This document shows positions 3,483 to 63,200 of a stretch of 64,000 nucleotides of DNA, piece by piece. How positions within the stretch are numbered: the first letter of the stretch is position 1; every line of letters begins with the position of its first letter. The DNA comes from Bryoerythrophyllum caledonicum (lineage: Eukaryota; Streptophyta; Bryopsida; Pottiales; Pottiaceae): the NCBI GenBank assembly GCA_963971425.1, contig OZ020522.1, positions 3,136,168-3,200,167 of the forward strand. Direction: 5' to 3'. Position numbers and translations under genes: made by a program. The notes beneath the pieces were generated by a model. That model was not told where the DNA came from and did no database searches. It saw only the letters and a program-made list of their open reading frames with translations.

Positions 3483-3850
3483 TTCAATAGATACATGGTT
3501 TTAGGGTTTTAGGGTTTAGGGCTCAAGGGGTTTTTGGATTTTAGGGTTTAAGGGTTTTTAGGGGGTTTAAAGTGTTTATAATTTAAGGGTTTAGGAGCTT
3601 TTATGAGTTCCGGATTTTACTGTTTATGAGGTTTTAGGTTCTTAGGGGTTTCAGGGGTTTAGGGGTTTTAAGGTGTTGTGAGGTTTTTGAGATGTAGGGT
3701 TTTTAGGATGTAAAGGGTTTTAGGTTTTTAGGTTTTAGGTTTTTAGGTTTTTGGGGTTTTAGGGTTATTGGGTTTGTAGGGTATTAGGTTTTTAGGTTTT
3801 TGGATTTTTAGGGTTTGTAGGGTTTTAGTGTGTAGGGTTTAGGGTTTTGT
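3483..3850 (+). repeat. Degenerate interstitial telomere-like (TTTAGGG) tract
   Basis: About 370 bp of variant TTTAGGG, TTTTAGGG and TTTAGGGTTTT units with many interruptions. TTTAGGG is the usual plant telomere repeat. The tract ends some 280 bp before the first ATG of DHFR-TS, so it lies in or next to that promoter. It is too degenerate to be a chromosome end; an old telomeric insertion or an expanded promoter telo-box are both possible. Confidence 0.7.
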
Positions 3851-4125: not shown

Positions 4126-7349
<3,224 letters not shown>

Positions 7350-10500: not shown

Positions 10501-10866
10501 TACAACATGAATCTCACTATTTAGGGAGCAAGGAATAACCTAGGCGTCAATTATGATGCGGATGAGCATAATATGGAAAATATAGAACACCTCTAAAATG
10601 TTGAAAGGATGAAAAACATAAGAAAAACCTTGAGTAGCAAAGGTGGGGAAAATACCAAATCTCCTATGGAACATCAAATGTAAATGACTCAATCAGAAAG
10701 AAAAAAAAGGAAATCCAGTAAGCACAAAAGTAAGTCAATGGATTGATCATCATACAAATTCATGGTCCCTTTCACCAATTTGCCAACTACGAATTTTTCA
10801 ACTTATCATTGTTTACAAATACATGTTGAACCTTGAAGGCTCAAAAGAGGCACCTACTTAGAATTC

Positions 10867-12165: not shown

Positions 12166-12230
12166 CGAGCCACCCCTCAAGTGAAGGAAACATCACCCGA
12201 GTGGCGGACGCATGAGCATATATTCCCCAT

Positions 12231-15424: not shown

Positions 15425-18400
15425 ACTTTTAGTTTCCTTTGAGAAGGAAGGAGTTCCATGAATCTGAGCTGCCTTTTTCCCTAAGGGCTGATTACGTTAA
15501 TTGAAAATTAAAAAAAAATTCAAGTCTCTTCGTATATGTGCCTCACTTTACAAATAACTCTATTGACTAAACATTCCGCTTGTCGTGCAGATCTACAGAG
15601 ATACATTTATGCAGAGCTACGGAATAGACATAGAGAGTGTCAATCTTTACCTCTTTTTATTTTATTTGAAATGGTTAAAATTAGCCATGAGTAGGTGTCA
15701 GTTAATCTACAATCTTGAATTAGTTTATGGCTAAGGTTCATGGTACAACATGACTTCATTCTTAAAAAGTGGGCAAAACTAAAGACTTGAGTTTAGAGAC
15801 CACATAGCACATCTGAGGTAACCAATCAAATCCCATAAGTGACCTATAAAATTGAGGTATACCCAAACCACTTCAATTGGAGGTTTATTGTTGGTCAAGA
15901 CCCCTTACTTTTGGTTGGCACTAATGGGGGTACATATTGGTGGCCACTAGCTAAACATGGTAGCACACTTTGAAAATCCATAACAAATTTACATTTCATC
16001 AGAAAAATATGAAATCACTTGGGTTGAAATTGTAATTTTTATTGGCTATCACTTTTAAGAATGTATATTATTATTTGTTCTCTCCATATATGCACATTGC
16101 TTAACCCTCAAGCGTCACAAATTGCCACTGTTGGCCATAGTAATCTACATGTATAGTGTTGTATTTGAACATGATAAGCTTCACATATTGGAATGACCTC
16201 CACATAAAAGATTGTTGAAGAATCTTTAATCCAGAGGTGTAAGTCTTACTATATTTTGTTACATTTTTTGTAACCTACAAAGTAAGATATGTATTTGTGT
16301 ATATGGTTCCCAACTAATGTATTGAGGGTTAACTTGTCCTTAATAGGGGGTTTACCTTACAAGTAGTAAAGACTACCCTGCATTGCTCAAAATGATTGTT
16401 AAATTAGTGGAAGAGCTTGGTGGTCTTTGTGCTCCAATTAAAGTAGTTTTGTTGTCTTTAAGAGTGAATAAATAATGTATATAACTTTGAATTTGATGAA
16501 TAATTCTTGAGCCTCTCTACATCTTGCATGTGAGTTGATAGAATTATCCGGTGGTGGTTTTGGTTCATCTCAATTTTTTTATTTGAAAGATATACTATTC
16601 AGATTTTGCTAATTCAATGGTTTAAAAATGATGGATAAATATTTTGAAAAGAAATACAATGGAATGTACAAATCCTACCTTCTCCAAATTGGTAAATGCG
16701 TGATTCTCTTGAAAGTCAAACCACGTGATACTTATTACTTCATGCAAAATCCATCATTACTCAACCCTTTACCACCTAAGTGGACCAGAAGGCACATAGA
16801 GAATCTACAAGGGTAGTAGATTAGGCGGAATATCATCTTCACAACGACCTCTCTTCATATAAATCATTGTAGTTTGTCACTGCGTGCATTGATTGGAGAT
16901 CCAAGAGATGCATTGGACAACTCTCATAGAGCTCCAAGTGCCCACTGATCACTTCATCTTTTAGTGCGCAGGTCCGTGTACATTTCCAGTTAGCTTTTGA
17001 TTATAGTAAAGCCAAGATGTGGTAGTTGATGACAGGTTGTAGTTTTATGTATCATATAGTAGGATTCACCACAACATTCAGTTAGTTGCACCATTTTAAT
17101 AGTGGTGTACGGATTGTTCTTAAGATTTGATTTATTTTGTAGAGTGATTTCTAATTATATGTACTTCCATGGTACTCTAAATTTTATGTGTAGTGTAGGT
17201 ACACTATATGATTTATATATGCTATAAGTTTTGACTATTGATGAATATTTTCACCAACCATATTAACAATGATCCCCTTCTTTATTTAGTATTGATGGTT
17301 GTACTTTTTGTAAAAAACTTCATCAAAAATAAAAAGTTATAGCGCATTCAAATCATAAAGTACCACTACACTAAACAAGAAATTTCACCTTTAGTGTTAC
17401 AATTTCAACTCGATTGATGGTGTATTATACCAATTAAAAGTATGAATTAGTTATGAATTTTCAAAGTGGTATGCAATGTTGAGCCCATTTGTGCCATGAG
17501 GTACCCTTCATAATCATATGCGAAAAGCAAGGGATCATGATCAATGCTAAACCTAAATTTTGCAATTGTGAATGAGTAAATGGGGTAGAATTTAGAAATG
17601 GGATCATTTCTAAAGCGGTGGAGATAGGAAAGTGGTAGTGAGCATCATCACCTAAATACATTAAATTCCATATCATTATGTTCAAATCCTTTTTTAAATC
17701 TAGACAAAACAATAGTGGATTAAAACTTCTATAATATTCCAAAGATGGACCTAAGGGAGTCTTCTATTAACCCTATCATGCCTAGGTGGACCACTAGGCC
17801 TCCAGGAATCTACAAGAATAATAGATCATGTAGAACATCACCTACACAACAAATACATTTCATCGCGACTCCATTTCACGTAAATCATTGTAATTCCCCA
17901 ATGCCTAGTACATCAATTGAGGACCAAATAGATTTGAGCCCTTAATGGTCTTTCAACATATAGATCTCTAAATATATATAAATGACAACCTAACTACTTA
18001 GATGTGATTAAAGTTATCCTTCAATATTGTTAAGTTTCTCTCATCAACTCCAAGACAATTATATGGGGCAAAATTTAATGTCTTGTTTGTAACTTCTTAA
18101 CCAACCACATCACCATCATACATACAAAGTTATTTAGATTTATTACAAAATTTGAAAACTTTCTTCATCAACTTGATTGATGTATTATGGAATTTATAAC
18201 AAGAAGCATATATGTTGGCATCATTGTAGATCTCGTAAATCATTGTAGATGTCTTATACAAAATCCCATCCATGAGGGCCCCTAGATCTCCCTCTTGCAC
18301 TTTATCAAGGGTCCAAGTATGATCACACAGTGTAATATTCAACATGACTCACTATTTAGGGAGCAAGGAATAACCTAGGCATCAATTATGATGCGGATGA

Positions 18401-18719
18401 GCATATGGAAAATATAGAACACTTCTAAAATGCTTAAAGGGTGAAATACATAAGTAAAACCTTGAGTAGCAAACGAGGGGAGAATTCCAAACCTCCTATG
18501 GAACATCAAATGTAAATGACTCATTGAGAAAGAAAAAAAAGGAAAACCAATAAGCACAAAAGTAAGCCAATGGACTGATCATCATGCAAATACATGGTCT
18601 TTCCACCAATTTGTCAACTACGAATATTTCAACTTACCATTGTTTACAAATACATGTTGATCCTTAAGGGCTCAGAAAGGCATCTACTTAGAATTCTCAC
18701 CCTACCAATATTGGTTCTA

Positions 18720-20072
18720 TCAAACCTCCTTACAATCATTTCTCTCTAAAAACTTTTTATCTAAGTACTTGTCATACTTTTGAAAATCAAGTTCCATTAT
18801 TCTAACAATAGCAGAATTACTTAAGAGGATTTCCATTATCTCTGGAAACAAAGGTCTCTTTAACCAATCCACATCCCAACATCTATTCAACAATTCTTCT
18901 ATCCAACTATCAACATATTTTGGAATTCTACGCCTTGCTCCATGGATTACTAGATCATAATCATTTCTACGATAACCTTCAAAAGGCAATTTTCCTGTCA
19001 AGACCTCATAACATGTCATTCCGTAGCTATACACGTCTGCTTCTTTGGAAAACACCTTCATATCCTTGCTTGGAACCTTATTCTTCCAAGCTTGTAATAT
19101 TTCCGGTGCCATGAAGAATCCAGTTCCAACAACTCCAATGGAGCACTCAAAGTCTGCCACATAATAGCTTGGTAGGAATCCATCCTTAAATAAAGAAACC
19201 AACACATTCGATGCTTTGAGGTCCCTATGAAGAATGTTATGGTTGTGCAACCAATTCATCTCTAGCGCAATTTGAAATAAGATTGTTTCAGCTTCATCTT
19301 TTAAAAATGGTCCGTGGTCATTTCCAATGTCCAACATCACACGATCAATCCGGCTTCGCAAATCCTCATGCTCTTTCTCCATTACAAATGCAAACCTTCC
19401 ATCTTGTAACAATATCCCCAAAATTACATCACAACAAAATCGTGCTGGTGGAGGTAGACCATGCATCGTAAGATCCTTGGGCACTGCATAGGATTGGAAG
19501 TACCCAAGGGGCCATTGAGCTTGTAGTTCCCACAAGCGGGTGCCCACCTTGAACACTTTCACCACTCACTCCTTTCCCTCCTCCGATATTTCCTCATTCA
19601 TCCTTGGATTCCTCCAAATGATTTTGGCATGAAAGAGCTCAGCTTGTCCCCCCTCCGCAAACTTCTCCCCCATCTCCAACTCACCAACCCTCAACCACCT
19701 CTTTGTGTCATAACCAAATGTTAGAAAGAATTCACCCCAAGTGGAATGCAACTGCAATTTCTCAAACACTTGCCTATTCTCTTGCGCCACTTCCTCATAA
19801 TCAAGGTCCGACTCCCACTCCGAGAGTTGGCTCCAATGCACCTTGGAACGCTCAATTCGGTCCTCAACATCACTCCCCTCCTTCCCACTCCTTATGGCCG
19901 GCTCCAAGCTCTCCCTGTCCTCGTATCTGCCATGGGCATGACCGGAGCTACTTCCGCGATCAACTCCTGAAGCGGGAGGAGCCGTCTCATCGTGCCCGGA
20001 CTCCATCGAGCCACCCCTCAAAACAAGGAAAACATCACCCAAGTGGCGGACGCATGAGCATAAATTCCCCAT
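18720..20072 (-). pseudogene. Protein kinase, array copy 2, interrupted by one nonsense codon
   Basis: Same gene as copies 1 and 3. It starts at the ATG at 20072 with MGNLCSC, keeps the acidic N-terminal region, FAEGGQAELFHAK, HRDLKASN, DFE, GTGFFMAPE and DVYSYGM, and ends with DCKEV. A TGA at 19566-19568 replaces the TGG codon of copy 3 just before the VVKVF lysine motif. The frame is otherwise intact on both sides. Full translation would give a product of about 450 aa like copy 3. Either this is a very young pseudogene or the stop marks a truncated N-terminal product of about 168 aa. Non-conservative changes (GFLPSYY, DVDWLKRP) also suggest relaxed constraint. Confidence 0.8.
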
Positions 20073-20960
20073 CACTCCCCAACCAAATGCAGCCCTTCTG
20101 CAACCCCAACCTCAGATCGATGCACGCCCCCACGAGCTGCACACAGAAACGATTCTCAATCTAAGGCTGCAAACGATGGCCAAACCACAGACACCACCGC
20201 ATCCCAGCCAAAGAGCGACCAGGGTTTCAGCAACCAGAAGCAACAGATCCGTAACAGGAGACGATGCTAGGTTTAGGGTTTAGGATTGAGGAGAAACACC
20301 GAACCTCACCCGCCACCAGACGCGGAACCAGATTCCTGCGCTCCCGAGTAAGACGACAGCAACGCCGGCGATGGAAGAGCACCAGTCCAGGGGAAGCGCG
20401 AACCGTGAGTCGAAAGAAGGCGAGGTGAGAGTTCGGAGAGCTCAAGCTGGTAATTTATTTCTCGCCTCCACGGAGCACTCTGGATGAAGACACTGTAGAC
20501 GGGAGCCTCTCGAACCCTGTTAGGGCCGGCTGGAGGATTCCTCGTGTGCCTTCCCCGACTTAGTAAACCCAGCCATCTTCCTCTCCCACTCTCAAGTCTG
20601 CAGAGCTCGATCACGAGAGCACCTTCATTTGTTTTCAAATGTATTATCTTATTTTCGAGGTTCTTAATACTATTGAGATTTTCATTCATTTTCATCACAT
20701 GTGATATTTTCATTCATTTTCATCACATTTTCATCAGGTTATCTTGGAGCGTCTTGAAGAAGTTGTGCGCAGACTTGTACCGATTAGCTAGGTTATCTGG
20801 TTGTGATTTTGGAGAGTGAATTTGGAGCTTGCAATAACGCCTACACTTCCTCCGATGAGACTGTGTACGAGATACTTGTTCCCATTGATAAGCCTGAAAT
20901 CCTGACAAAGGCGCTCCAGGTTCTGGCGGAGTTTAGCTCAGAGGTGTGCTAGCTCATTCT

Positions 20961-20992
20961 CTAAACCCTAAACCCTAAACCCTAAACCCTAA
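20961..20992 (+). repeat. Four tandem CCCTAAA telomere-type units
   Basis: CTAAACCC is repeated four times within the first intron of the unit 2 protease remnant. Units 1 and 3 have a single unit at the same place (CCTAAACCCTAAT), so the tract expanded locally after duplication. Confidence 0.85.
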
Positions 20993-22069: not shown

Positions 22070-24825
22070 TCTAAAACATATATGAACAATATAGAACATA
22101 GAAGCAAGAGGATCCTCCCTTCTGTTCCTGCTTCTCCTACAGCAGCTCCCTGACTCGGCTAGCAACAGGGTATAACATTGTGTCGACATGCCCTGAAGGA
22201 GGAACATTGCAAGCACTAGAGCAGATGCTCATAGAGGTGAGGTTCTATATTTCATGTTCGCCGTACATGATTATGATGAAGTGCACAATGGGCGAAATTT
22301 TGTGGTGGGCACAGATGAGCATTGTTTTGATATTAATGGTTAGTGTGAAATTTATCCGAAGGTTGCTCAAATTCGATTATATGGTTTTTCTGAGCGGGAA
22401 GTAGCAACTGTTCGTGCAGAGGAGATGATGACCTTGAAATCTTGGTATTTACGGAGAGACAAACTGGAGTTCACAGAGTGGCGAGACACATATGTTAAGG
22501 TGACGCTGCCCAGCTGTTCTACATAGCTAAATTTGCTCTGGTCCCATTCTCGTGAATTTCTATTGTTGTTCATTGTAGTTAAATTATTACTGTGTAGTTT
22601 TTCTCAAGCTAGAACTTCAAAGATGCTTAATCTAACTATATAATGACTCTAAGTAATGGACTCCGCGTGTGCTACAAATGCACCGACTTTCTTGATGACG
22701 AGGTTCTCCACGCTACATGCCTCAATTCGCATTGAATTATTTTTTACCAATTTAATTCGCTTCTTAGATGAGACATACTCTTGAACTATCATTACTCATT
22801 TCTTCTTGTTCCGTTTTTGGTTCTCAGATCCTCGTGCGTGGTTTTGCATTCAGAGGCCTTTCCGAAGTCGATGAAAGAAACTATTTTTCATGCAGATTGG
22901 GAACTTTATTTTCTCATGAAGCCAGAAGACATGGCCTTAAACCAACTGTACTAGAAGATATGCTTTGGGGAGAAGGATCTCTATGGCTTACACTCGCAAT
23001 TTTGATGGAAAGTGTTTACCATCCGACTTGGAAACAACTCTACAGGTAAAACCCGATGGCTTACCTTTACATGAGAAATTTGTGCTACTATCCTTGTCAT
23101 TTGCAGAGGTACTATTTTGTCTAGGTTGACATTACATTGGATGAAATTAGGCGCCTGCAAGAAGAAGAGACATATTCAACGAGTGGCGATGTATCCAGTA
23201 AGGAAATGCGGCAACCTTAACAAGACAATTCTCAAGATAAGTTGTGTCATGAGTGCAAAAGTTGTGATCGATGCATTAATTTCCATTTGGTTGTTTGGTA
23301 ATGCCATGTTCAAGATCATTATATCTAGATCATTATATCAATTATCAAGGATCATTCACTTTTTGATGTTACACTTCTCTGTTCCTTTGAAACTTGGTGT
23401 AGAATGAACTGACATTATTTACATCATAGTGGTAGTAAATTTAGATCATACCCAAATTTTGGATTGTAAAAAGCTTTCATGTAAAATTTTTGATATTTTT
23501 TGTCCTAAGAATTTAAATTTTTATTTGAACTTTCCTCTAACTGTATGCTACCAAATTAAATTATTATTTGAATTTTTCTATAATCGTATTCTTTTTCACA
23601 TAATATGTTACTAACTAGGTTGCAATGTAGCTATAACATTTCATCAGTTTTTTGCAAATAAGAAGCATAAAAATTTATGAACTTAATCTTAAATCAATCT
23701 AAATATATCAAATAATACAATAAAGTTTATGGCAATAACTCTCGGATATGAATGGTTTAAATTAAAATTTAATGATAAATATTTCAAATTTCAAATTTGA
23801 AATCAAATTATGAATCGAACTAGATGGAATTAAATTATGGTTTGAGCTCAAACCATAATTTTTCAAGAAGACAATCTTCACCATTAACCCTTTAGTGCCG
23901 AGGAGACCCAAAATGGGACTCTGAAGGTGTTAAAACTCAATTTGCATGAAATCCATGAGGAATTAGGTTGTGAAATTGGAAGTTTAAATTTGCACACATT
24001 ACATGAACACTCTTCAAAAATGAGATCATGATTTGGAGTTATATAACTCATGGAACACCTAGGAATACAACACAAAATACACCAAATACCTTAAAATACA
24101 ATGAATACCATGCCGCTTACTATGTCATATTTCATTCACATACAAAATTATTTTGGTCTTAAATTTTGATTGAAATTTGTCTTTGAGGGCTTCTTCATTT
24201 TTTGTGATTGTCAATCTCTCTCATCGTATACAAAACTTTTGTTCTAATTTGTATAATTTTGGAACCTTTTCGTATATAATCAAATAGACAAAAGTCAAAA
24301 AATCATCAATAATCATGTATTAATGTTTTCTTGACCTACGATATGTCAGTGCAAAGCTATCGAACTCTTTCATTCAAAATACAAAAATTCTTGCAAGAAT
24401 CTATTGATGGATAAAGTAGTATACCCTCCAAAGTCCACAATTTTTATAACCAGTATACGGTAGTTTCAAACACTATAATCTATTCCATCAACCATTGGAT
24501 GTTGTGCAAATTTTCCCCGAAGTTCAGGTCATGGATTGAGTTCAATTTTGTGAAGTTGGATATTGAAATTAGGCATTCTATCTCCATCAAAGTAAAAAAA
24601 TCAGCACATATCTTGGTTTTGGAGACACATGATTTTGGCACTAAAGGGTTAAAAGAAATCTTGTTTTTTTTTTTAAAACTAATAAAATGACATGATTTAT
24701 GGATAAGAGCAAGTACAGTTAGAGATTAATTTATCATACCATGCTGAGATGTCTTGTGATGATTCGGTAAATCTTGTAGCATGCATGAAAGTACTAGAAA
24801 AATACACCTACACAAGCAGTCATGA

Positions 24826-29044: not shown

Positions 29045-30764
29045 TTATTTCCAGTTAGTTTTTGATTATGGTAAAGCCAAGATGTGGTAGTTGATGACAG
29101 GCTGGAGTTTTATGTATAATGTAGTAGGATTCACCACAACATTCAGTTAGCTGCACCATTTTAATAGTGGTGTATTGATTGTTCTTGAGATTTGATTTGT
29201 TATGTAGAGTGATTTTTAGTTATGTGTATTTCCATGGTACTCTAAATTTTATGTGTAGTGTAGGTACACTATATGATTTATATATGCTATAAGTTTTGAC
29301 TATTCATGAATATTTTCACCAATCATGTTAACAATGATCCCCCTATTTATTTAGTATTGATGGGTGTACTTTTAGTAAAAAAAAATTCATCAAAAATAAT
29401 AAGTTATAGCGCATTCAAATTATAAATTACCACTACACTAAACAAGAAATTTCACCTCTAGTGTTACAATTTCAACTCAATTGATGGCATATTATGCCAA
29501 TTCAAAGTATGAATTAGTTATGAATTTTCAAAGTGGTATGCAATGTTGAGCCCATTTGTGCCATGAGGCACCCTTCATAAGCATAGGCAAAAAGCATGGA
29601 CTCATGATCAATGCTAAACCTATATTTTGCAGTTGTGAATGAGTAAATGGGGTAGAAATGGGATCATTGCTAAAGCGGTCGAGATAGGAAAGTGGTAGTG
29701 AGCATCATCACCTAAATACATCAAATTCCATATCATTATGTTCAAATCTTTTTTAAAATCTAGAGAAAATAGTAGTAGATTAAAACTTCTATAATATTCC
29801 AAAAATGGAGCTAAGGCAGTCTTCTATTAACCCTTTCATGTCTAAGTGGACCACGAGGCCTCCAAGAATCTGTGAGAATAATAGATCATGTAAAACATCA
29901 CCTACACAACAAATAATTTCATTGCGACTCAATTTCACGTAAATGATTGTAGTTCCCCAATGCCTAGTACATCAATTGAGGACCAAAGAGATTTGGGTCC
30001 TTAATGGTCTTTCAACATATAGATCTCTAAATATATATAAATGTCAACCTAACTACTTAGATGTCATTAAAATGATCCTTTAATATTGTTAAGTTTCTCT
30101 CATCAACTCCAAGACAATTCTATGCCGCAAAATTTAATATCTTTTTTGTAACTTCTTACCCAACCACATCACCATCATGCATACAAAGTTATTTAGATTT
30201 ATTACAAAATTTGAAAATTTTCTACATCAACTTGACTAATGTATTATGGAATTTATAACAAGAAGCACATATGTTGGCATCATTGTAGATCTCGCAACTT
30301 CTTATACAAAATCCCATCCATGAGGGCACCTAGATCTCCCTCTTGCACTTTATAGAATGATCACACAGTGCAGTACACAACATGACTCTCACTGTTTAGG
30401 GAGCAAGGAATAACCTAGGCATCAAGTATGATGCGGATGAGCATAATATGGAAAATATAGAACACCTCTAAAATGCATAAAAGGTGAAAAACATAAGAAA
30501 AACCTTGAGTAGCAAACGAGGGGAAAATACCAAACCTCCTATGGAACATCAAATGTAAATGACTCAATCAGAAAGAAAAAAAAGGAAATCCAATAAGCAC
30601 AAAAGTAAGTCAATGGATTGATCATCATACAAATTCATGGTCCCTTTCACCAATTTGCCAACTACGAATTTTTCAGCTTATCATTGTTTACAAATACATG
30701 TTCAACCTTGAAGGCTCAGAAAAGGCACCTACTTTGATTTCTCACCCTACCAATATTGGTTCTA

Positions 30765-32114
30765 TCAAACCTCCTTGCAATCTTTTCTCTTCAAAATATT
30801 TTCAATTTGATACTTGTCATATTTTTTAATGTCTAATTGATATTTTCTAACAACAGCAGAATTACTTGAGAGGATTTCCATTATCTCTGGAAACAAAGGT
30901 CTCTTTGAACAATCCACATCCCAACATCTATTCAACAACTCCTTTATCCAACTGTCTACATATTTTGGAATTCTAGGCCTTGCTCCATGGATTACTAGAT
31001 CATAATCATTTCTACGATGACCTTCAAAAGGAAGTTTTCCTGCCAAGACCTCATAACATGTCATGCCGTAGCTATACACGTCTGATTCTTTGGAAAACAC
31101 CTTCATATCCTTGCTTGGAACCTTATTCTTCAAAGCTTGTAATATTTCTGGTGCCATGAAGAATCCAGTTCCAACAACTCCAATGGAGCACTCAAAGTCC
31201 GCCACATAATAGTTTGGTAAGGATCCATCCTCAAATTCACAAACCAACACATTCGATGCTTTGAGGTCCCTATGAAGAATGTTATGGTTGTGCAACCAAT
31301 TCATCCCAAGTGCAATCTCAAAAAAGATGCTTTCAACTTCATCTTTTGAAAATGGTCCGTGGTCATTTCCAATGTCCAACATCAGACGATCAATCCGGCT
31401 TCGCAAATCCTCATGCTCTTTCTCCATTACAAATGCAAACCTTCCATCTTGTAACAATGTCCCCAAAAATACATCACAATGAAACCGTGCTGGTGCAGGT
31501 AGACCACGCATCTGACGATCCTTACGCTTTGCACAGGATTGCAAGTATCCAAGGGGCCATTGACCTCGTAGTTCTCGCAAGCGGGTGCCCTCCTTGAACA
31601 CTTTCACAACCCACTCGCGTCCCTCCTCCAAATCATCCTCATTCTTCTTTGGATTCCTCCAAATGAACTTGGCGTGAAAGAGCTCAGCTTGTCCCCCCTC
31701 CGCAAACTTCTCCCCCATCTCCAACTCACCAACCCTCAACCACCTTGTGTCATAACCAAATGTCACAAAGAAATGACCCCAACTGGGATGCGACTGCAAT
31801 TCCTCAAACACTTGCCTATTCTCTTGCACCACTTCCTCATTGTCAAGGTCCGACTCCCACTCCGAGAGTTGGCTCCAATGTTCCTTGGAACGCTCAATTC
31901 GGTCTACAACATCACTCCCCTCCTTCCCACTCCTTATGGCCGGCTCCAAGCGCTCCCTGTCCTCATATCTACCATGGGCATGATCGGAGCTACTTCCGCG
32001 ATCAACTCCTGAAGCGGGAGGTGCCGTCTCATCCTGCCCGGACTCCATCGAGCCACCCCTCAAGTGAAGGGAAACATCACCCGAGTGGCGGACGCATGAG
32101 CATATATTCCCCAT
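30765..32114 (-). CDS. Protein kinase, array copy 3 (449 aa, apparently intact)
   Basis: The only fully open copy with its N terminus. The ATG at 32114 gives MGNICSCVRH: Gly2 with Cys5 and Cys7 fits N-myristoylation followed by palmitoylation, so a membrane location is likely. Residues about 20-110 are acidic and low-complexity, with SQLSEWESDLD. The kinase domain covers about 115-410: FAEGGQAELFHAK, WVVKVF, a long insert before the aC region (GTRLRELRGQWPLGYLQ), HRDLKASN, DFE, GTGFFMAPE, DVYSYGM and RCWDVDCSKRP. HRD and the VAIK-type Lys are present, so catalysis is possible despite DFE, but activity is unproven. Single exon, with telo-box motifs (AAACCCTAAA) in the 5' region near 32135. Divergent from the protease remnant. 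A TKL-type assignment rests on HRDLKASN and the RCW motif. Confidence 0.9.
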   Translation of the reverse strand: MGNICSCVRHSGDVSLHLRGGSMESGQDETAPPASGVDRGSSSDHAHGRYEDRERLEPAIRSGKEGSDVVDRIERSKEHWSQLSEWESDLDNEEVVQENRQVFEELQSHPSWGHFFVTFGYDTRWLRVGELEMGEKFAEGGQAELFHAKFIWRNPKKNEDDLEEGREWVVKVFKEGTRLRELRGQWPLGYLQSCAKRKDRQMRGLPAPARFHCDVFLGTLLQDGRFAFVMEKEHEDLRSRIDRLMLDIGNDHGPFSKDEVESIFFEIALGMNWLHNHNILHRDLKASNVLVCEFEDGSLPNYYVADFECSIGVVGTGFFMAPEILQALKNKVPSKDMKVFSKESDVYSYGMTCYEVLAGKLPFEGHRRNDYDLVIHGARPRIPKYVDSWIKELLNRCWDVDCSKRPLFPEIMEILSSNSAVVRKYQLDIKKYDKYQIENILKRKDCKEV

Positions 32115-33079
32115 CACTCCCCAACCAAATGCAGCCCTAAACCCTAAAACCCAACCTCAGATCGATGCACGTCCCCACGACCTGCACACGGAAACGATTC
32201 TCAATCTAAGGCCGCAAACGATGGCCTAACCACAAACACCACCGCATCCCAGCCAAACAGCGACCAGGGTTTCAGCAACCAGAAGCAACAGATCCGTAAC
32301 AGAAGACGATGCTAGGTTTAGGGTTTAGGGTTGAGGAGAAACACCGTACCTCACCCGCCACCAGACGCGGAACCAGCTTCCTGCGCTACCGAGTAAGACG
32401 ACAGCAACGCCGGCGATGGAAGAGCACCAGTCCAGGGGAAGCGCGAACCGTGAGTCGAAGAAGGCGAGCTGAGGGTTTGGAGAGCTCAACCTGGTTATTT
32501 ATTCCTCGACTCGACGGCGCACTCCGGATGAAGACACTGTAGACGGGAGCCTCTCGAACCCTGTTAGGGGCGGCTGAAAGATTCCTAGTGTCCCTTCCCC
32601 GACTAAGTCAACCCAGCCACCTTCCTCTCCCACTCTCAAGTCTTTCATCTTTTATGGAAGTCGGCATTTGGTCTCAGTGTGCATCGATCTTTCTGTGCTC
32701 AACATCCTGTGCAGATGTTCTTACAGGTCACTGGAGAGGTGTAGATCATGGGATTGGAAGCTGGATTTGGCAGGTGCTGAAGCAAGACAGTCTACGAGCA
32801 TGTTATGCAAGTCCCGTCCCTTATCAATCCCTTGCGTGGGATGTGACATCAGTTATTCATGAGCGATGTGCTTCCAGTTTTACTAGATTCTTGGAGCAAC
32901 ATCTATATATATATCTTCCTATACGTAATTGTTTTCAAATGTATTATCTTATTTTCGAGGTTCTTAATACTATTGAGATTTTCATTCATTTTCATGACAT
33001 TTAAAATCAGGATATCTTGGAGCGTCTTGAAGAAGTTGTGCGCAGACTTGTACCGATTACCTAGGTTATCTGGTTGTGA

Positions 33080-42539: not shown

Positions 42540-42945
42540 TCATGCACCAGAGTGTTAAAGCCACATCAACACTGATGCCAAAGCAACCACAGAAGAACAC
42601 AGAGATGGTAAAGGAGAGCATAAGAAACATCATAAGAAAAACATCATGTCAACAATCATGCACCAAACGTAAACCCTAAAGAAACACCAATCGTGCACCG
42701 AAGTGTTTGATCCTAAAAACGCCACATCAACACTGATGCCAAAGCAGCCACAGAAGAACACAGAGATGGTAAAAGAGAGCATAAGAAACATCATAAGAAA
42801 AACATCATGTCAACAATCATGCACCAAACGTAAACCCTAAAGAATCACCAATCATGCACCGAAGTGTTTGATCCTAAAAACTCCTCATCAACACTGATGC
42901 CAAAGCAACCACAGAAGAACACAGAGATGGTAAAAGAGAGTGTTT
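42540..42945. repeat. 161-bp tandem repeat, about 2.4 units
   Basis: Matching points are spaced 161 bp apart: CAGAAGAACACAGAGATGG at about 42590, 42751 and 42912. The units also contain ATCATGCACC and CATCATAAGAAAAACATCAT. Non-coding, just beyond the 3' end of the complex I gene. 41983-42539 is AT-rich with no gene seen. Confidence 0.8.
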
Positions 42946-53599: not shown

Positions 53600-56500
53600 T
53601 TAAAACCCACTCATAGAGGGCATGCCATAGCCTGACATACCTGGCATACCACCATAAGCTGCCATCCCTGGCATTGGCATGCCCCCGCCCATGTCTGGCA
53701 TACCGCCTCCCATGCCTGGCATGCCAGCAACAGGAGGGGCAGGTAGAGCCAGAGGCAAGAGCTGAGCATACATGTTCTGCCAAAAACACATGTCACACTA
53801 GTCAGTGTCAAATCGATACATCATACAAATGAATTCATGACAGTAGATCAGCGGAATACCAGATCTGAAGAACAGAGTACAAGCAGTAGAACTGTCTTAG
53901 ACAGTAAAGGGCAGAACATTACCGAATTTGCAACGACTTCTTTCTCTTCTTGCTCCTTCGACTTCTTCTCCTCATTGGCTTCCAATTTGTCCTTGACCAA
54001 GTCATCGACCTTTGTGGAATACTCACGCAAGAACTGCAGGACTCGATTTTAGAGAATGTTAGAGACATCAAGCACTAAACGAGTCATACTTAAAACTAAA
54101 TATTCATTTGGATTGAACATGATCAGGAACAAAATGCTTCCGACTATTACGGCATAATAAAATAAAAAGGTTCGCACCTGCAGCAAATATGGTACAGCAA
54201 AGTCCATGATGCCGTGCATCCATGCCAACTCTACCGCAACATCAGCACGGATGAGGTCGTAGCAAGTGTATAAGCAAGCAGCGAAGCACTCTTTTTTGCC
54301 CTGCGACCACAGAATCAAAATACGTTAGTACTCCGAAACATTTCGAGACATAGCTTTATCACTTGTAAGGATATTAAGAACCCCGTTTTTACCTTGTCCA
54401 CAAAGAATGTGAGCAGTTCCTCAGCAAGGTCACGATCCCCTGACTGCGAGCAAGTCTCCATAGCATCCTTGTATAGATTATCTTTCTTAGACAAAGCCAC
54501 AGACTGTTTCCATCTGCCAGCTCTCTTGTAGATGTAGGCTCCAACACGGCGCATTTCCAAAAGCTCATGCTTCTCAATCTACAAAAGCAAATGCGATGGT
54601 TAATGTATGCTTGTTCCAAGTAATGCAGCGAAAGGCAGACTGTGAGGATTGTGATGCAGAAAAGACTGTCTTAATGAGAGAATCGAATGAAAGGTGAAAG
54701 CACTCACCCTTTGTGCCATTGAAATCTGATCGAAGTTATCATACATATCAATTGACTCCCTGAGCCTCTCATAATCTTCCTCTTCAATGTAGAGGTTGTT
54801 CAGAGCTTCATTGACTGCAGCATTGTTGGCACTTTGAACTGCTACCATGTATGGTTTCACCAGCGGAAGGTGTCCAGCCTGCAGAATATTCAACCAGCAA
54901 CAGTTAGCGAGTTCTTACTCGACTATGATTACACAGTCACTTTGGTGGCTGTATTGAGCACAGTAAGTGAAAAAAACTGCAATACAAACAGCTACACAAT
55001 CCTGCGACACCAGTCCAAGTACCTTTCGCATGATATCCACAACACGTGTGTGGTCAACACGTGAAGCCAAGACATTGAGCAAGTCGTTGATCAGCTCGGG
55101 ATACTCCTCGAGGTAGAAATACACTGCCTTGTAGTAGAGCTCCACGTTTGCAACCTTAACAGCAACATCCTTGAACTGCATGTGTTCCCATGCTTCTGGA
55201 GAGTGGCTCATCATGGTTGATGCAGCGTTATCATACTCGTCATAGGCAATGTACAAGTACGTGAGTTCCTTCCAGTGTTGTTGCTCGTCGCATACACGAA
55301 TAAGTTTGGGAATGTTGATGCGAGTGACAAACAGCTTGAGATGCTCCATAAGCTTCTCTGGGCGGTATCTGGCATACAATGTGCCAAGCTCCGTGAAGAT
55401 ACCCATGTGAGCACGCTCCAAACCGAGCCCACTTTCCATAAGTGAGATAAGCTCATCGAAGCGGCCCCTGTTCTGGTAGTATTCACTGACCTCTTCCAGA
55501 TCGTCAACCTGCAAACAAGTTGGAAAAAAAGGTAAGGAGTTTGCTTCTTATGTTGACAATTCAAAACAGCCACTGCAGATGTTGCATTCAGAGATCTACT
55601 AGTAGAGCAATTAAAAGGGATAATCGGATGATGCAGTAATTGAAGCAAACCCATACCTGGACAATAACATTGAGACCACAAATTTGAGCCAGGCGGAATT
55701 CCTCGGCATCCACGCAAGCAAAACAGACTTCCTTCCATGTCCGTGCGCTGTTAGCCTTCCTGGCTGCATCCACGGCTGCTTGGAACTGATCAAGCTTGAC
55801 TAGAGTACTGGCAAGTCTAGCCCAGTTGGAAATGTGCGTGAAAATGATTTTGGCGGCTTCATATAGCTTCTCGTCAAACAGACGATCTCCAACAGTTTGC
55901 AAGTTGGCAAGGTTGGGAGTAACAATAAACTCCTCAATGTCATCCAATCGGTTGAGCTTGGCATAAGCAAAAATCAACTCAGAGTCCACCTTCGCCTCCT
56001 TGACCTTCTTGCGTACCATGTTCAAGTATCTCACCAGATCCTCGTATGCCCTTACACCAGATGCCACGTCGATAACCTCATTGTACTGAGTGGCATCATT
56101 GGCCTTAATGAAGGACTCAATAGCGTCGCTCACCAGTCCGTCTCTCAACTGCGCCTTACCAACCTGACTCCAGACCTCATCCTCTTCAACACGGGCTGCA
56201 AACTCCACAGCGCGGTCAATGTCGCGAATGTTGTCCAAAAGGACATTAACTGCTTGGACATTGAGGTTAAATTTCTTGAAAATGGCAAATGCCTCCTCAA
56301 AAAGCTCGGCAGTAACTGCAATCTCTCCTACTGCCGGACCATCGAAGTTATCCAAACGATTGATGTAGTCCATGACGCGAGTTGTGTCAGCCTTGATTGC
56401 TGTGAGAATGAGGAGGTTCTGAAGGTTGGGGTTGCCACTGAAGGCTGAGTTCTGAAGAACGATCTTTTCTAGAAGCTCAATCAGCTCATGCGGCAGATCT

Positions 56501-59500
56501 GCGGTCATGAAAGCCTTGACTGTGGCTGACACCTGCTCTGGGCTCTTGCTCTCTGGCAAGGCAGTAGACACCACCTGATCAATGAGCTGCCTGCGACAGG
56601 GGTTCTCCGGATCCAAAACCCTCAACCACAGATCAGGCTCCATCCGCTCCACCACATACCTGGGCAGAATAAAAGGAGAAAAATTAGTGGCATGTCCAAT
56701 AGCAGCAGACAGAAAATTGAGATTTCCATCCTTAACTGACCTCCCACACAGTAAGGACAAGGAGCACTAACATATAGAAGTCTGTAAAAGCTCCTCAAAG
56801 AAGCTGCTTCACCGATACAAAGCAAATTACATGACTTGTCAGGAGGAACAATTCGACAAACAAATCTAGTGTACCTGGCCTGAAGTTTGAAAAGAGAATT
56901 CTTGTTCGTGACGTTAACAAGCTCCTCATCACAAAGGCCACGCCGATACGCAACCACAGCAAGTGTTGGATCGCGCTTCTCACAGTACTTGCCAACGACC
57001 TTGGAGTCATAGTAGGGGTTTGTAGTGAGAAAATGCTCAGGGTTGTTGTTTGTGTCGATGATGATTTTTCCCAGGGCATTGTGCACATGCACATCTTGAC
57101 TACCTTCGCTCACAAGGTGCTCTAAGAACTGGGTCAACAGTCTCAGACGATTTCTCTTCTCACACTCAAGAACTAATGGTTCCACTGGAAGCAGAGAGCG
57201 TACAGAAAGAATCAAACCCTTGATGAAATCTTCTGGACAGTCATCATCCAGCAATTGCCCCACCACCAAGGGTGCATTTTGAGGATTGACCTTCTGCACA
57301 TAACCTTCGATATAACGAAGCATGTTGTTGACGTAAAGATAATGAGTGAGATCAGGCACGAACCCATGACGGTCACAAACATTAATAAGAGGCCTAGCAT
57401 CCGGGAGCTTAGATTCCATCAAGAAATTCTTAGTTCTCTCCGGAGGGTAGAAATTCGACTCCCTTGTAACACGCTCAACTTCTTTGATTTGGCCAGTCTT
57501 TGCTGCAGCTTCGATGTATTTGTAGTGAATTTCAGGTTCCTCAGTTGACGTCAAGTAAGCCCCAAGGAAAAAGTACAGGCCCTCGAAAGATTTAAAATTC
57601 TCAAACAGCTTCACACATGAATCGACGCCCAACTGCTCTGCATATTCCTTGGCCACCTGCACTATGATTTGAAGATTTCCACGCATGTTCACTTGCAGCA
57701 GCTCCTTCATGCAGTCTAATGCCCATTCCTTGGACAGTTGGCCAAAAAATTCGACCAGGGACTGTGGCTCTATCGCATGGGTGTTGACAACAATGCGCTT
57801 GATGTCATTTAACTCCGTGTAGTGCTGAAGGGCACGCATGTAAAGACCAGCTTTCTCACAAAGCTGAGCAACACGAGGACGGTCGTAATGACTAAACATG
57901 CCATTGGCCAAAATTGCATCGGCCACATTCGGAAACGTTACCAAATTGATTTCCAAGACCTTCGTCTGGAGGAGCGCATGCTCGGGAAGATTTGGTTTCA
58001 ACACGTCCAGAAGGAAAGCAGTTGCTTCCCTAATCATGTTCCTCTGAAGGAACAAGTCAGTGATAGTATTGTAGTCAACCGGGCAGCCACCTTCCAATTG
58101 TGACATCATGAGAGCAAAATTTACAGCACCTTGAGGATCTGCTCGCAGGATCGATTGGAGCAAGAAAAGGTAATCCGGAGTGTATCCAACTTGCTTGGAG
58201 TAGATCAAAATCTTGTCGAACTCACCACGCTCAGCAAAAGCTGCCACCACCTTCGGTGTAGCTCTGGCCTTAATAAATATCTTCAGTGCCATGTCGTTGT
58301 CCACAGTCTTAACAAGATCTCCCAATTCTTCACTGCATTCCAGCTTGTCCTCTGCTAACCAGTTCTCAAGTAGATTCTTCTTGTTTTGGTTAACCACTAG
58401 TCGTGAAAGCTCCAAAGACTCGAACCTATTCAACTTTCCCTTCGTCAATAAAGTCCCGAAGTACTGCAAGAGTGGTGATGTTTGTCCAGGTTGCACTGGA
58501 ACACTCTGAAACTTGGCGATTGTATCAGGGGTGCGAAGAATTCCTTGGGGTGACTCTGCTGCAAGATCTGCAGCTTCTTTGTACTTCATTTGGGTGAACA
58601 ACTCATGAAAACGTTGGACAACCTGGAATCCGAACACAAAATAATACCAAGTGAAAACCCTGTGTGCTGAAATAGAGCTATATCACAGAATCGCTAATTT
58701 AACATTCACCAAAATACGAGCAAAATATTTAGAAGGTTCAAACAGACTGACTGGACTAAATGGATTAACAGAAATAAATAAATCCAGTATACCTAAAACA
58801 TTAACTATAGTCACGCGCACTAGGATAGAAGGCACCAAGGCATGCTACAGTAGAAATACAACTCGTCTTTGTGTGTAACATAATACAGTTCAGAATCTCA
58901 AGGACAACCGGAGAATGTTAGCGAACAGTACCAGGCCCTCCGCTCCGGGCAAGTTCCCCCGTCTTGCAAGATTCACTGCAAGCTCCAAATTATTCAGCTG
59001 CAAGCAACAGAATAATCTCACAACGTTAGAGAAAGCTTTGATCAAAGAAAACATCCTGTCCAAAAGTAACATCGTCATGTCAACTACAACTTCGAAGAAC
59101 CACTCCTACGCAGAAATACTCCGGTCCATGCTGAGATAAGAAAAGTAAGTTGGAAGAGACAGGTTTTGACAATACTCACCTGGTTACTAACAAACGGGAC
59201 AATCGTAGCCTCATTAACCGCAGCAAGTAGTACTTGGCCTCGCCGATTGACAGCATAAAACCCGCCACCATTAGGATTATCAGCTGTTAAGAAAATAGGA
59301 TCAGTGCTGATCCGTTGTCTGTACACCGCCGTTGCTGTTTCCAGGTCGTAAACGAATAGAAGACCAAGTTTCGTAATTACATAAATGAGGCCATACTTGG
59401 AGGAGATCTGATTGTCAAAGTCGAAAAGGGTTTAATATAATAACACATATCACACATGTCCAAGTTTTCAGCATCTTAAGTCTTGAACAAAATTGGGTCA

Positions 59501-62500
59501 AGGTGAAAAGTCCACCAAATCGGCAAAACATGCTCCATCAAGAATACCACTCACAAACAGCTACACTACGAAACAAATCAAGAGGAGCCTCGAATGTGAT
59601 GCCAAAGTAAAAAGAAGCAAAATTGTGAATTCAAGGATGCAGGACAAGAACCAGCAGGTGGGCTTCACCATCAGAAGCCAAAAAAAACACAAAAATGCAG
59701 TAGAGGTATACCTGCATTGCAACGGGAAAATCGTCGGCAAAATCTGGGGGGAAAAAAAGATCAGCTACCTTCTTCGAGAAACCAGGTCTACCTGCAAAAA
59801 CAAGTACAAAAATCTATTTTAGGAGAGGATCAAAAACCCAGTAGGATAGTAGAGGTCCACATGTCGCCATCTGATCTAATGGTGAGTTCGAAAGGGTAAT
59901 CCAGTAGAAAGACGCAAGGTTTGCAAAGTGGAGACTTAAAAAGGCACCACTGTCACACGTCTTGTCCATCTGAAAAGATAGACATCAAAAAGGTGCCACA
60001 CAGAAGATGAGCACCAGACGAAGTATGAGCCAGTGTCAAGTGCAGGGAATTTCTAAGGTGAAAGGGTAGATCTGTCCAGGTCGAACCAACCTGGCTGAGC
60101 ACCAAGCTCAATAACATGCAGCTTAGATGTAAGCTGTCCAGCTGTAATAGTTTTGGTGGAGAATGCAATCAGAAGAGATGGAGAATCGTTTCCGGCCACC
60201 TGAGTTCATCAACAATTACAAGTTCACTAGTATGAGATCCAAGAAGAGACACAGACCTGGCCGAGCCCCCAGCTCAATCACATACAACTTTGAAACCAGT
60301 TGACCGCCAATCAAAGTCTTTGTAGCAAAAGAAATGAGAAGAAAGGGTCCATCGTTTCCTGAAACCTGCAGAACTCAAGAAACAGTTCGAAAAAATGATT
60401 GCTGGACAATTCAGAAGAAAAGATCGCTAACTAGCATGCCAGTAGTACTTCACACGGTGAAAACTACGCCAGCTCAACCTTTCAGCAGCTATAAAGTCAC
60501 CTGGTGAGAAGCAAATGACGCAGCATGTGCTTCTAGCGCTTGACTCCTCTGCTGTTCCACTGAAAACAACTGCATGTTTCCCTTCACAAGTTGGGGTCTC
60601 TGAAAATCACAAATGATGAAAAAAAATATTAAACAAGTGAACGAACATCAAAGCAAGATCACTAAAGAAACATTTCCATAATAGAAGGGACAGGGATGAC
60701 TAAAGACGAAGTGAAGGAAGATTAATTAGGAATCATTTCATAATGATCAGCCTTGTATGAAGGAAAAACGTACTCCTATCCTTTAAAAGGATGGGAATAA
60801 GCCGCAGGTGACTTTTACCTCTGGTGCTCCGGGGGCGATACCAATCAACACAAGCCACTTCTCTGCAGGATCACATCTATAGTTGATGATCTGGTTGCCA
60901 CTCAGATTTGCTGTCCTCTCGAACATCTTCAAAGGTTCGGATTCACCTGAAACAGGGATGAGCAAGGAAAGATTCAACATATGAATTCCAAAGGTGATGA
61001 AAAAGTGAAACACAAGACTCACTTCTGCAAAATACACTCACTTCTTGTTCCCCCAGACAGCTCCATACAACTTGACACTCGGATACAAAGCGAGCAACGT
61101 TCTACAGGTTACCGACACTAAAAAGATACGTACCTTCGATAGTCCAGTGATAAACTGAAGTTTGTGTCACGAGTCCAAGTAATCTTGGTGTAATCCACTT
61201 CCAGAAAACCACCTGGTAGCATGTGCAACAATCAGATACAGCTCGTATCTAGGGAACACCTGAGTACACTCTCGAAGTTGCTTCAAACCTCTGTAGCCTT
61301 GCATGCTGAATATTAGCAGAGCCGAAAGTAGAACGGCAGGGCTATTCTCTTACCTGCTCTGGCATCTGGTAAGACTTCATCTTGGCCTTCAATTCGATGT
61401 TAAAAATCTGGAGATGGTCTTGTGTCGTTCCAGGTATTAGAGCTGTTTCAGATAGACGGAGAACAGTTAATTAATGCTTCCGTCAACGACATTTGCCAAC
61501 CCCGTAACCATACACCATCCTGAACTAGGCTACATTTGGCTTGCCCTATTTGATTGAGCAGATTCTACAAACGGTTAGAGACAAGGTTACTCGATTAAAA
61601 ATTTGAAACGCCGTTGAACATATCTCCGCCATCTTTACATTGACTACTCCCTAAAAAGTTTCCCACCTATCCGGAAATTTATCAATCGGTTCCATCCCTT
61701 GAACACCCTTAGTGACTACTGAACTTATACTCCTTAAACCAAAAAATGAGCTCACTTCTTTCGCAACAAGATCCGGTGCTAGGGCGAGCATTATAACTAA
61801 AACAAATGATAATACACGCTTCTGACCAACACGTTCTAATGATACTCCTGTACTTTAAGTCCAGGTTTAAACAGCGCTCGCAACCAACATTGTCGCTCCG
61901 ACTATCACCCAGTAATATTATTAGGTCTATTTAATCGAACTACGGAGTATCAATTGCAACAGCGTCCAGAACCTGATCTCAGCACGGCCAGAAAATCGTC
62001 CATGCGACTGCGAATCAGTCGGCAACCACAAATGTCGCCACTAACGCGAAGATCGCGACCCGTAGATCTACGAGCAACGCTATTTGCCACTGCCTCTCAC
62101 ATCAAAAAAGAAAAAATAGCCGCCCTTGCACCATTCGCGGTCGCTCTCTACCGTCCTCCAGATCAATCAACCGGATCGCGGACAATTGCACTTCCAAAGC
62201 CAAGCGCGAAACAGAGCGTACCTTTGAGCGCCAGCACCTTGCTGTCCGGATTCATCAACGCCGAGTCCGCCGTGATCGGGCGCCGCAGCGGCTGGTTCGG
62301 CATGCTCATATCAATAATCACCACGCTGTTCTGCGGCGACGTCTCCCGCACGCAAATGTACTTCTCCGATTCCATCGTCACGTGCGTGAACGTGACGAAT
62401 TGCTGGTTTATCCCGAGGCTCGTCAGCTGCAGCATTACACCAGAACAACAACAACATCAGCATCAACAACTCACAGATCTGAAACCCTAGCGCCAGATCC

Positions 62501-62554
62501 CGTCCTCACCGATAGCGCATCCTTCATGGTGATAGGCGCGTTGGCGGCCGCCAT
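53600..62554 (-). CDS. CHC: Clathrin heavy chain with a duplicated exon 7
   Basis: Triskelion leg of the clathrin coat for endocytosis and trans-Golgi traffic. Exons 5' to 3': 62510-62554, 62222-62426, 61354-61442, 61134-61212, 60819-60946, 60501-60599, either 60257-60365 or 60091-60199, 59712-59791, 59180-59407, 58932-58997, 56875-58622, 55657-56659, 55023-55508, 54708-54878, 54393-54578, 54178-54300, 53923-54033, 53600-53776. With one exon 7 the sum is 5133 nt, 1710 aa; Arabidopsis CHC1 is about 1705. [14 protein letters not shown] begins the N-terminal beta-propeller (about 1-330), which binds adaptors. The alpha-helical leg repeats and the trimerisation region follow. The tail is rich in Gly, Met and Pro ([13 protein letters not shown]). 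The gene looks intact. Both exon 7 copies are in frame and well conserved, so two isoforms are likely. Confidence 0.97.
60091..60199 (-). other. Clathrin alternative exon 7, downstream copy (7b)
   Basis: 109 nt, acceptor AACTCAG, donor CCAG/GTTGGT. Encodes [17 protein letters not shown] and then [20 protein letters not shown], closer to Arabidopsis than 7a ([13 protein letters not shown] identical). Only 57 nt of intron lie between 7a and 7b; 299 nt lie between 7b and exon 8. Confidence 0.92.
60257..60365 (-). other. Clathrin alternative exon 7, upstream copy (7a)
   Basis: 109 nt, acceptor TTCTGCAG, donor CCAG/GTCTGT. Encodes [17 protein letters not shown] and then [20 protein letters not shown]. 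It aligns without gaps to the downstream copy and to the same stretch of Arabidopsis clathrin (VPGNENPSILISF...). Phase 0 in, phase 1 out. Confidence 0.9.
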
Positions 62555-62939: not shown

Positions 62940-63200
62940 ACCTTGGTGGGTCTTCGGAGGTTGGGCAGGGGTCTTCGGGGGCTGGTCTTGAGAGATCATA
63001 TCGTGAATGGGTGGGCAGGGGTCTTTGGGGGTTGGTCTTGCGAGATGGGAGGGCAGGGATCTTCGGGGGCGGGTCTTGAGAGATCATGTAGTGAATGGGT
63101 GGGCAGGGGTCTTTGGGGGTTGAGATGGGTGGGCAGGGGTCTTCGGGGATGGGTCTTGAGAGATGGGAGGGCAGGGGTCTTGGGTTTGGTAGGTCGCGGG
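62940..63200 (+). repeat. GC-rich minisatellite upstream of clathrin
   Basis: Five or so irregular units of about 30-65 bp built from GGGTGGGCAGGGGTCTTYGG, TGGTCTTGAGAGATC and similar phrases. The plus strand has many GGG runs and could form G-quadruplexes. Open in several frames but clearly repeat-derived. Confidence 0.8.

What the first reader, a model, noticed from the sequence alone, without database searches (positions are those of the whole stretch)
60091..60365. Clathrin heavy chain gene with a pair of mutually exclusive exons in the adaptor-binding propeller
Seen: two 109-nt exons in tandem, each with good AG and GT borders, open, and encoding the same 37-residue stretch with 26 identities. 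The differences are mostly conservative (A/S, S/G, S/F, A/S, S/A, I/L, T/I, A/G, T/V, H/Y, Q/R), while the DNA has diverged widely at third positions, so both copies appear to be under protein-level selection. Each exon enters in phase 0 and leaves in phase 1, so using both, or neither, breaks the frame. The 57-nt spacer may be too short to splice, a known way to enforce exclusivity. Inference: two clathrin isoforms that differ in one propeller blade and so perhaps in cargo-adaptor preference. I know of no description of this in plants.
Basis: partly seen in the sequence, partly recalled or inferred. Interest (0 to 1): 0.9.

Follow-up and report, generated by a model that had tools for sequence, protein, structure and literature searches.

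The report
Clathrin gene with swappable exon pair
A plant-type gene for clathrin, the protein that shapes transport vesicles, carries two alternative versions of one small exon of which only one at a time gives a full-length protein, so one gene probably makes two clathrins that differ slightly where cargo adaptors bind.

Summary
A complete clathrin heavy chain gene lies on the minus strand (62554..53600). It has two tandem 109-nt versions of exon 7: 7a (60365..60257) and 7b (60199..60091), 57 nt apart, sharing 74/109 nt and 26/37 residues. Either alone gives an open 1710-residue protein; both, neither, or both plus the spacer gives an early stop. dS is about 2.2, dN 0.20; simulated neutral decay of one copy almost never reproduces this (2 of 5000). 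So 7a was held as a coding exon. Best reading: a mutually exclusive pair. Single use is enforced by frame and probably by the short spacer, where any branch point is under 50 nt from the 7a donor. The exon encodes one wall of the 'arrestin box' between propeller blades 4 and 5. Four of five published contact residues are the same in both versions; the fifth (His229 in mammals) is His in 7b and Tyr in 7a. Expression, regulation, conservation in relatives and any effect on adaptors are untested: no RNA reads, host genome or plant relatives were available. The mechanism is known; I found no report of it in clathrin heavy chain.

The parts
53600..62554 (-). clathrin heavy chain gene, coding part from ATG to TAA, 18 exons (with either version of exon 7), 1710 aa
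   Evidence: spliced alignment guided by a recalled Arabidopsis CHC, open with 7a or with 7b, TAA directly after the last aligned codon; Pfam Clathrin_propel and Clathrin-link in both isoforms, Clathrin repeat in one leg ORF
60501..60599 (-). exon 6 (upstream partner of both versions), leaves in phase 0
60366..60500 (-). intron between exon 6 and 7a, 135 nt
60257..60365 (-). exon 7a: [36 protein letters not shown](G); the more derived version, Tyr at the His229 position
60200..60256 (-). 57-nt spacer, intron-like in composition (T 0.40, GC 0.39); candidate branch adenines 9 nt or more from its 3' end are at most 48 nt from the 7a donor
60091..60199 (-). exon 7b: [36 protein letters not shown](G); closer to the recalled Arabidopsis sequence, His at the His229 position
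59792..60090 (-). intron between 7b and exon 8, 299 nt; no third copy of the exon seen
59712..59791 (-). exon 8 (downstream partner of both versions), enters in phase 1

Best explanation
Exons 7a and 7b are a tandem-duplicated, mutually exclusive coding pair. Each productive CHC mRNA carries one of them, giving two full-length clathrin heavy chains that differ at 11 of 37 residues on the blade 4-5 side of the N-terminal propeller. Shown from sequence: homology, openness, interchangeable phases, frame break if both or neither is used, and a divergence pattern that means constraint on the protein sequence of both copies. Inferred: (i) 7a is not joined to 7b because their 57-nt spacer leaves under about 50 nt between the 7a donor and any branch point in it, as in OGDH-type pairs; (ii) leaks are removed by nonsense-mediated decay; (iii) the choice is tuned by trans-acting factors acting on unequal splice sites (7a has the stronger ones; both donors have a pyrimidine at +3, unlike the other 16); (iv) the swap alters the arrestin-box rim (His to Tyr at position 229, and a nearby loop) and so may shift preference among adaptor motifs.
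For: Complete gene, open with either version. Skipping both gives a stop after residue 223, using both after 276, both plus spacer after 264. dN 0.204 against dS 2.23; codon-position identity 28/30/15 of 36. Neutral decay of one copy reaches the observed residue identity with both copies open in 1, 0 and 1 of 2000 runs for three levels of constraint on the other copy, and with splice dinucleotides kept as well in 2 of 5000. 7a is the outstanding candidate among 53 open intron stretches. Spacer 57 nt against 83-779 nt for the 15 introns that do not abut exon 7; its only YTRAY is 9 nt from the 3' end, and the other TNA adenines more than 9 nt from the 3' end lie 24, 33 and 41 nt from the 7a donor. 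In 629 human clusters, under 50 bp is taken as potential steric interference and found in 57 (9%), and 377 (60%) hold exons not divisible by three (PMC5740500, passages). OGDH: branch points 25-41 nt from the donor enforce exclusivity (PMC7969005, abstract and passages). The exon covers human 206-237 by alignment (numbering checked with recalled human sequence), including arrestin-box residues F216, F218, H229, I231 and V233 (PMC5182127, abstract and passages); the yeast residue at the 229 position, R235, makes a salt bridge to the motif's Asp at +3 (PMC11543927, passages).
Against: No RNA evidence at all; no relatives in which to see both copies kept. A half-relaxed copy is only weakly excluded (nonsynonymous acceptance 0.5 in one copy, 0.05 in the other: P 0.0425). 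7b, whose protein is the more conserved, has the weakest donor of the gene, and 86 of 596 GT sites and 105 of 592 AG sites in the gene outscore its sites. Of 11 differences only 1 falls among the 5 exon-encoded pocket residues, no more than expected by chance (11 x 5/37, about 1.5), so the pocket core is preserved rather than remodelled. Predicted pairing between the introns and the spacer is no stronger than in shuffles, so there is no sign of docking/selector RNA structure. Introns of 56 bp have been validated (PMC6310983 citing a human study, passage), so the steric argument is not proof. In maize, RT-PCR of both CHC genes showed no coding alternative splicing (PMC3742294, passages).
Confidence: 0.72

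Rival explanations
1. 7a is a relic: a once-used or never-used duplicate that is now skipped, all clathrin being made with 7b.
For: 7a is the faster-changed copy (23/37 identical to recalled Arabidopsis CHC against 26/37 for 7b); no transcript evidence exists here.
Against: Open frame, intact splice sites, the second-highest acceptor score of the 18 scored, saturated synonymous but low nonsynonymous divergence; neutral decay reproduces this in 2 of 5000 simulations. The 5 (7a) against 2 (7b) changes relative to recalled Arabidopsis are too few to show relaxation.
Confidence: 0.12
2. The second copy arrived recently from a diverged CHC paralogue by unequal crossing over, so the protein-level constraint reflects its earlier life in another gene and not use as an alternative exon here.
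For: Pairwise dN/dS cannot tell where the copies were when they diverged. The window's own genome is not held, so paralogues could not be searched.
Against: Needs two strongly diverged CHC genes and a fusion that keeps both exons intact. The spacer shows no significant likeness to the adjoining intron ends (P 0.112 and 0.076, 500 shuffles each), which fits an old event in place but does not exclude this.
Confidence: 0.08
3. The pair works as a switch for unproductive splicing: joint use or joint skipping makes a transcript with an early stop and so sets the amount of clathrin, the protein difference being incidental.
For: Both joint use and joint skipping give early stops; the 7b splice sites are weak.
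Against: Does not call for residue-level constraint on both copies; the 57-nt spacer disfavours joint use. It could operate in addition to the best explanation.
Confidence: 0.08

Closest known systems
Mutually exclusive homologous exons from tandem exon duplication (animal OGDH 4a/4b, alpha-tropomyosin, Dscam and others)
   Same: Adjacent homologous exons of equal length and phases that swap one stretch of a folded domain; short intervening intron with branch point near the donor as in OGDH (PMC7969005); frame break on joint use, possible in 60% of human clusters (PMC5740500).
   Different: In a plant-type clathrin heavy chain; exclusivity and expression not observed; no sign of competing RNA structures.
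Arabidopsis FLM/MAF1 mutually exclusive exons
   Same: A plant gene in which one of two neighbouring exons is chosen, changing an interaction motif (PMC3266260, passages).
   Different: A MADS transcription factor; there the 3' exon is called cryptic, with remnants only in MAF2 and MAF3; here the copies are clear homologues of equal length in a coat protein.
Plant clathrin heavy chain genes (maize CHC1/CHC2, Arabidopsis CHC1/CHC2)
   Same: Same protein (83% identical to the recalled Arabidopsis sequence), many-exon gene.
   Different: Maize RT-PCR clones gave a single coding transcript per gene and the authors concluded there was no alternative splicing in the coding sequence (PMC3742294, abstract and passages); those four genes have 24-30 exons against 18 here.
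Alternative splicing of mammalian Cltc
   Same: A clathrin heavy chain gene with regulated splicing: a shift from adult to embryonic pattern in muscle is mentioned (PMC5840707, one passage).
   Different: The passage does not say which exon; no homologous exon pair is mentioned.
Mammalian arrestin-2 long isoform and clathrin arrestin box
   Same: The same binding site on the propeller, bound by a loop of the long arrestin-2 isoform (PMC5182127).
   Different: Here the splice variation would be on the clathrin side.

Membership tests
Clathrin heavy chain | Full-length homologue with N-terminal propeller, linker and leg repeats | tested here: met
   1710 aa open with either version; Pfam Clathrin_propel and Clathrin-link in both isoforms' N-terminal 379 aa, Clathrin repeat in one leg ORF; PDB clathrin NTD matches at E 3.4e-105
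Mutually exclusive exons (sequence criteria of WebScipio, PMC3228551) | Neighbouring internal exons of about the same length | tested here: met
   109 and 109 nt
Mutually exclusive exons (sequence criteria of WebScipio, PMC3228551) | Same splice-site type and reading frame, no in-frame stop | tested here: met
   AG..GT both, phase 0 in and 1 out, both open
Mutually exclusive exons (sequence criteria of WebScipio, PMC3228551) | Sequence homology | tested here: met
   26/37 residues, score 0.74 of self
Mutually exclusive exons (RNA criteria, PMC5740500) | Junction reads from each exon to the flanking exons bridging the other | not testable with these tools
   no reads held
Mutually exclusive exons (RNA criteria, PMC5740500) | No joint inclusion, unless it shifts the frame | tested here: inconclusive
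   joint inclusion would shift the frame and stop early, so the exception applies; absence of joint reads not testable
Sterically enforced exclusivity | Branch point under about 50 nt from the upstream exon's donor | tested here: inconclusive
   spacer is 57 nt; TNA adenines 9 nt or more from its 3' end are at most 48 nt from the donor; the branch point actually used for 7b is not mapped and could lie upstream of the spacer
RNA-structure (docking/selector) exclusivity | Competing pairings between introns stronger than chance | tested here: not met
   duplex energies within 200 shuffles each: fractions at or below observed 0.915, 0.650, 0.755; single sequence only

The most novel reading that the evidence does not exclude
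One clathrin heavy chain gene of a plant makes two regulated triskelion types by swapping a blade 4-5 exon, so that arrestin-box selectivity (His or Tyr at the position where yeast uses Arg to read the adaptor motif) is chosen by splicing, giving a plant cell or tissue two coats with different adaptor preference from one gene.
Probability: 0.25. Interest if true: 0.8.

Novelty: new member of a known kind. Interest (0 to 1): 0.56.

Why it matters
Clathrin heavy chain is usually treated as a common scaffold whose specificity comes from adaptors. A splice-selected propeller blade would put some specificity into the scaffold itself, and would do so in plants, where mutually exclusive coding exons are sparsely documented (one study predicts 99 candidate exons in Arabidopsis). 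It makes a direct test possible: the same triskelion with one wall of one peptide-binding box exchanged by nature.

Tried and rejected
Third copy of the exon in the window: none seen. Competing RNA pairings between the introns and the spacer: not above shuffles. Traces of duplicated intron flanks (spacer against neighbouring intron ends): not significant, P 0.112 and 0.076. Relatives of the CHC gene in public collections, searched with exon 11 only: viral contigs, no pattern match; genome contigs, 19 pattern matches of which none encodes a relative; these collections hold viruses and prokaryotes, so this says nothing about plants. Known RNA families and tRNAs in the window: none. Enrichment of differences in the arrestin-box pocket: considered and rejected (1 of 11 differences against about 1.5 expected). 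PMC6829547 (VHA-H, crop plants) was looked at as a plant precedent (passages); it classifies annotated transcripts and does not describe homologous exon pairs in the passages seen. Passages of PMC6581706, PMC5694535, PMC9013439 and PMC2674458 added nothing decisive.

Literature searches behind 'no report found' (open-licence PMC library only; only listings with titles and starts of abstracts were seen, and most listings are capped): clathrin heavy chain + mutually exclusive exon (6 of 6 listed, none on clathrin exons by title and abstract start); mutually exclusive exons/plants/tandem exon duplication (20 of 494); clathrin heavy chain/alternative splicing/plant/exon duplication (20 of 116); mutually exclusive/duplicated exon/Arabidopsis/steric (20 of 212); clathrin/N-terminal domain/arrestin box/blades 4 and 5 (10 of 10); mutually exclusive spliced exons/Arabidopsis/exon duplication/Kollmar (12 of 505); intron length and steric hindrance (12 of 36, and 47, 8 of 8); clathrin heavy chain with early land plants (12 of 67); clathrin heavy chain/splice variant/CLTC (12 of 359). 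Subscription papers were not searchable.

Full report
What is there. The minus strand from 62554 to 53600 holds a complete clathrin heavy chain (CHC) gene. It is 83% identical to that guide (1418 of 1701 aligned residues with 7b, 1415 with 7a). Pfam finds Clathrin_propel and Clathrin-link in the N-terminal part of both isoforms and the Clathrin repeat in one ORF of the leg. PDB clathrin terminal domains match at E 3.4e-105. No genome is held for the window, and the species is unknown to me. A plant origin is supported by the protein, and by CTAAACC repeats at 20961-20992, which I recall as the plant telomere unit.

The exon pair. Masking one copy and aligning again gives the same gene with the other copy in its place: 7a at 60365..60257 or 7b at 60199..60091, each 109 nt, entering in phase 0 and leaving in phase 1. 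They share 74 of 109 bases and 26 of 37 residues, counting the split Gly completed by exon 8. No third copy is seen in the window. Under the usual sequence rules for such pairs (PMC3228551, abstract and passages) I tested 317 AG..GT stretches in the gene's introns next to exons of 45-600 nt. Of these, 53 were open. 7a scored 0.74 of a self-match, a 6-nt-longer form of 7a 0.67, and the best unrelated stretch 0.07.

Are both copies held by selection? Synonymous sites are saturated (pS 0.71, dS 2.23) while dN is 0.204. Identity by codon position is 28, 30 and 15 of 36. If one copy had decayed neutrally to the observed nucleotide identity, the mean residue identity would be about 18 of 36 instead of 25. 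The observed identity with both copies open arose in 1, 0 and 1 of 2000 runs for three levels of constraint on the other copy. With splice dinucleotides also kept it arose in 2 of 5000. Strong constraint on both fits well (P 0.61 with nonsynonymous acceptance 0.1 in each copy). A copy at half constraint is only weakly excluded (P 0.0425). This argument assumes that the copies diverged in place. If one copy came recently from a paralogue, the constraint could be older than the pair, and that could not be checked.

Which copy is older in character? Against the recalled Arabidopsis sequence, 7b keeps 26 of 37 residues and 7a 23. By eye, five positions match Arabidopsis in 7b only and two in 7a only, too few to conclude more than that 7a is somewhat more derived.

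How single use is enforced. The frame alone suffices for the protein. Exon 6 joined to exon 8 gives a stop after residue 223, both copies together after residue 276, both with the spacer after residue 264; either copy alone is open to the end. The spacer adds a probable physical bar. It is 57 nt, against 83-779 nt for the 15 introns that do not abut exon 7 and 135 and 299 nt for the introns on either side of the pair. Its only YTRAY branch motif (a consensus I recall) sits 9 nt from the 3' end, and the other TNA adenines more than 9 nt from the 3' end lie 24, 33 and 41 nt from the 7a donor. Eleven of those 15 introns have a YTRAY 19-48 nt from the 3' end; the other four have none between 10 and 60 nt. 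Under about 50 nt is the published steric limit (PMC5740500; PMC7969005; passages). Against this, validated introns of 56 bp are cited in a passage (PMC6310983), so splicing of the spacer is unlikely rather than impossible. I found no sign of competing RNA pairings.

How the choice might be made. Scored with a matrix from the gene's other sites, 7a has a strong acceptor (9.89) and a middling donor (5.5), while 7b has a lowish acceptor (2.66) and the weakest donor of the gene (3.18). All 16 other donors have a purine at +3; 7a has C and 7b has T. On sites alone 7a should win, so the more conserved protein version would need help. That is a prediction of regulation, not evidence of it.

What the swap changes. 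By the alignment the exon corresponds to human residues 206-237. Published contacts of the arrestin box, between blades 4 and 5, include F216, F218, H229, I231 and V233 (PMC5182127, passages). In this gene they read Ile, Phe, His or Tyr, Ile, Leu: four are the same in both versions, and position 229 is His in 7b and Tyr in 7a. At that position yeast has Arg235, which pairs with the Asp at +3 of its adaptor motif, and mammals have His229 (PMC11543927, passages). So the swap touches a residue where lineages differ in motif reading. But only 1 of 11 differences falls in the 5 pocket residues, about chance. Three differences lie in a four-residue insertion relative to mammals and one soon after it (Thr/Val). 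A shift in adaptor preference is therefore possible, not shown.

Known or new. Mutually exclusive homologous exons are a well-known kind. In plants they are sparsely described: FLM/MAF1 (PMC3266260, passages), a Picea MADS gene (PMC6243048, listing only), and 99 predicted Arabidopsis candidates left after initial and terminal exons are set aside, from which the authors infer wide use in plants (PMC3923563, passages). For maize CHC1 and CHC2 the authors concluded that coding alternative splicing does not occur (PMC3742294, passages). Mammalian Cltc is alternatively spliced in muscle, exon not named in the passage (PMC5840707). My searches showed no CHC exon pair in the listings; the listings are mostly capped and cover open-licence papers only. 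I file it as a new member of a known kind, in a striking gene.

Verdict.

Noticed in passing
9137-12298, 16970-20140, 29047-32185: Three copies (about 91-93% identical) of a block of about 3.2 kb carrying a single-ORF protein kinase gene on the minus strand (10867-12180 and 30765-32117 match Pfam Pkinase). The middle copy (18720-20075, not scanned with Pfam) is interrupted by an in-frame stop (two adjoining ORFs).
   Followed up: partly
14861-15420 and 22720-23279: A 560-nt direct repeat at 99.5% identity next to duplicated blocks that are otherwise 87-93% identical, suggesting recent conversion or a young insertion.
   Followed up: no
3497-3848 and 20961-20992: Telomere-like repeats inside the window: a degenerate GGTTTTAG array (65% matches) and a perfect CTAAACC array of 4.6 copies.
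   Followed up: no
4126-4845: Dihydrofolate reductase domain (Pfam DHFR_1) from residue 107 of the ORF, matching profile positions 4-113 of 159, so probably part of a longer multi-exon gene.
   Followed up: no
42560-42940: 161-nt tandem repeat, 2.4 copies, 96% matches.
   Followed up: no
62962-63181: Imperfect tandem array (units of 38-50 nt, 66-69% matches) about 0.4 kb upstream of the CHC start codon.
   Followed up: no
60249-60256: A second GT donor 6 nt downstream of the 7a donor would give a 115-nt version of 7a with two extra codons and the same phase.
   Followed up: no
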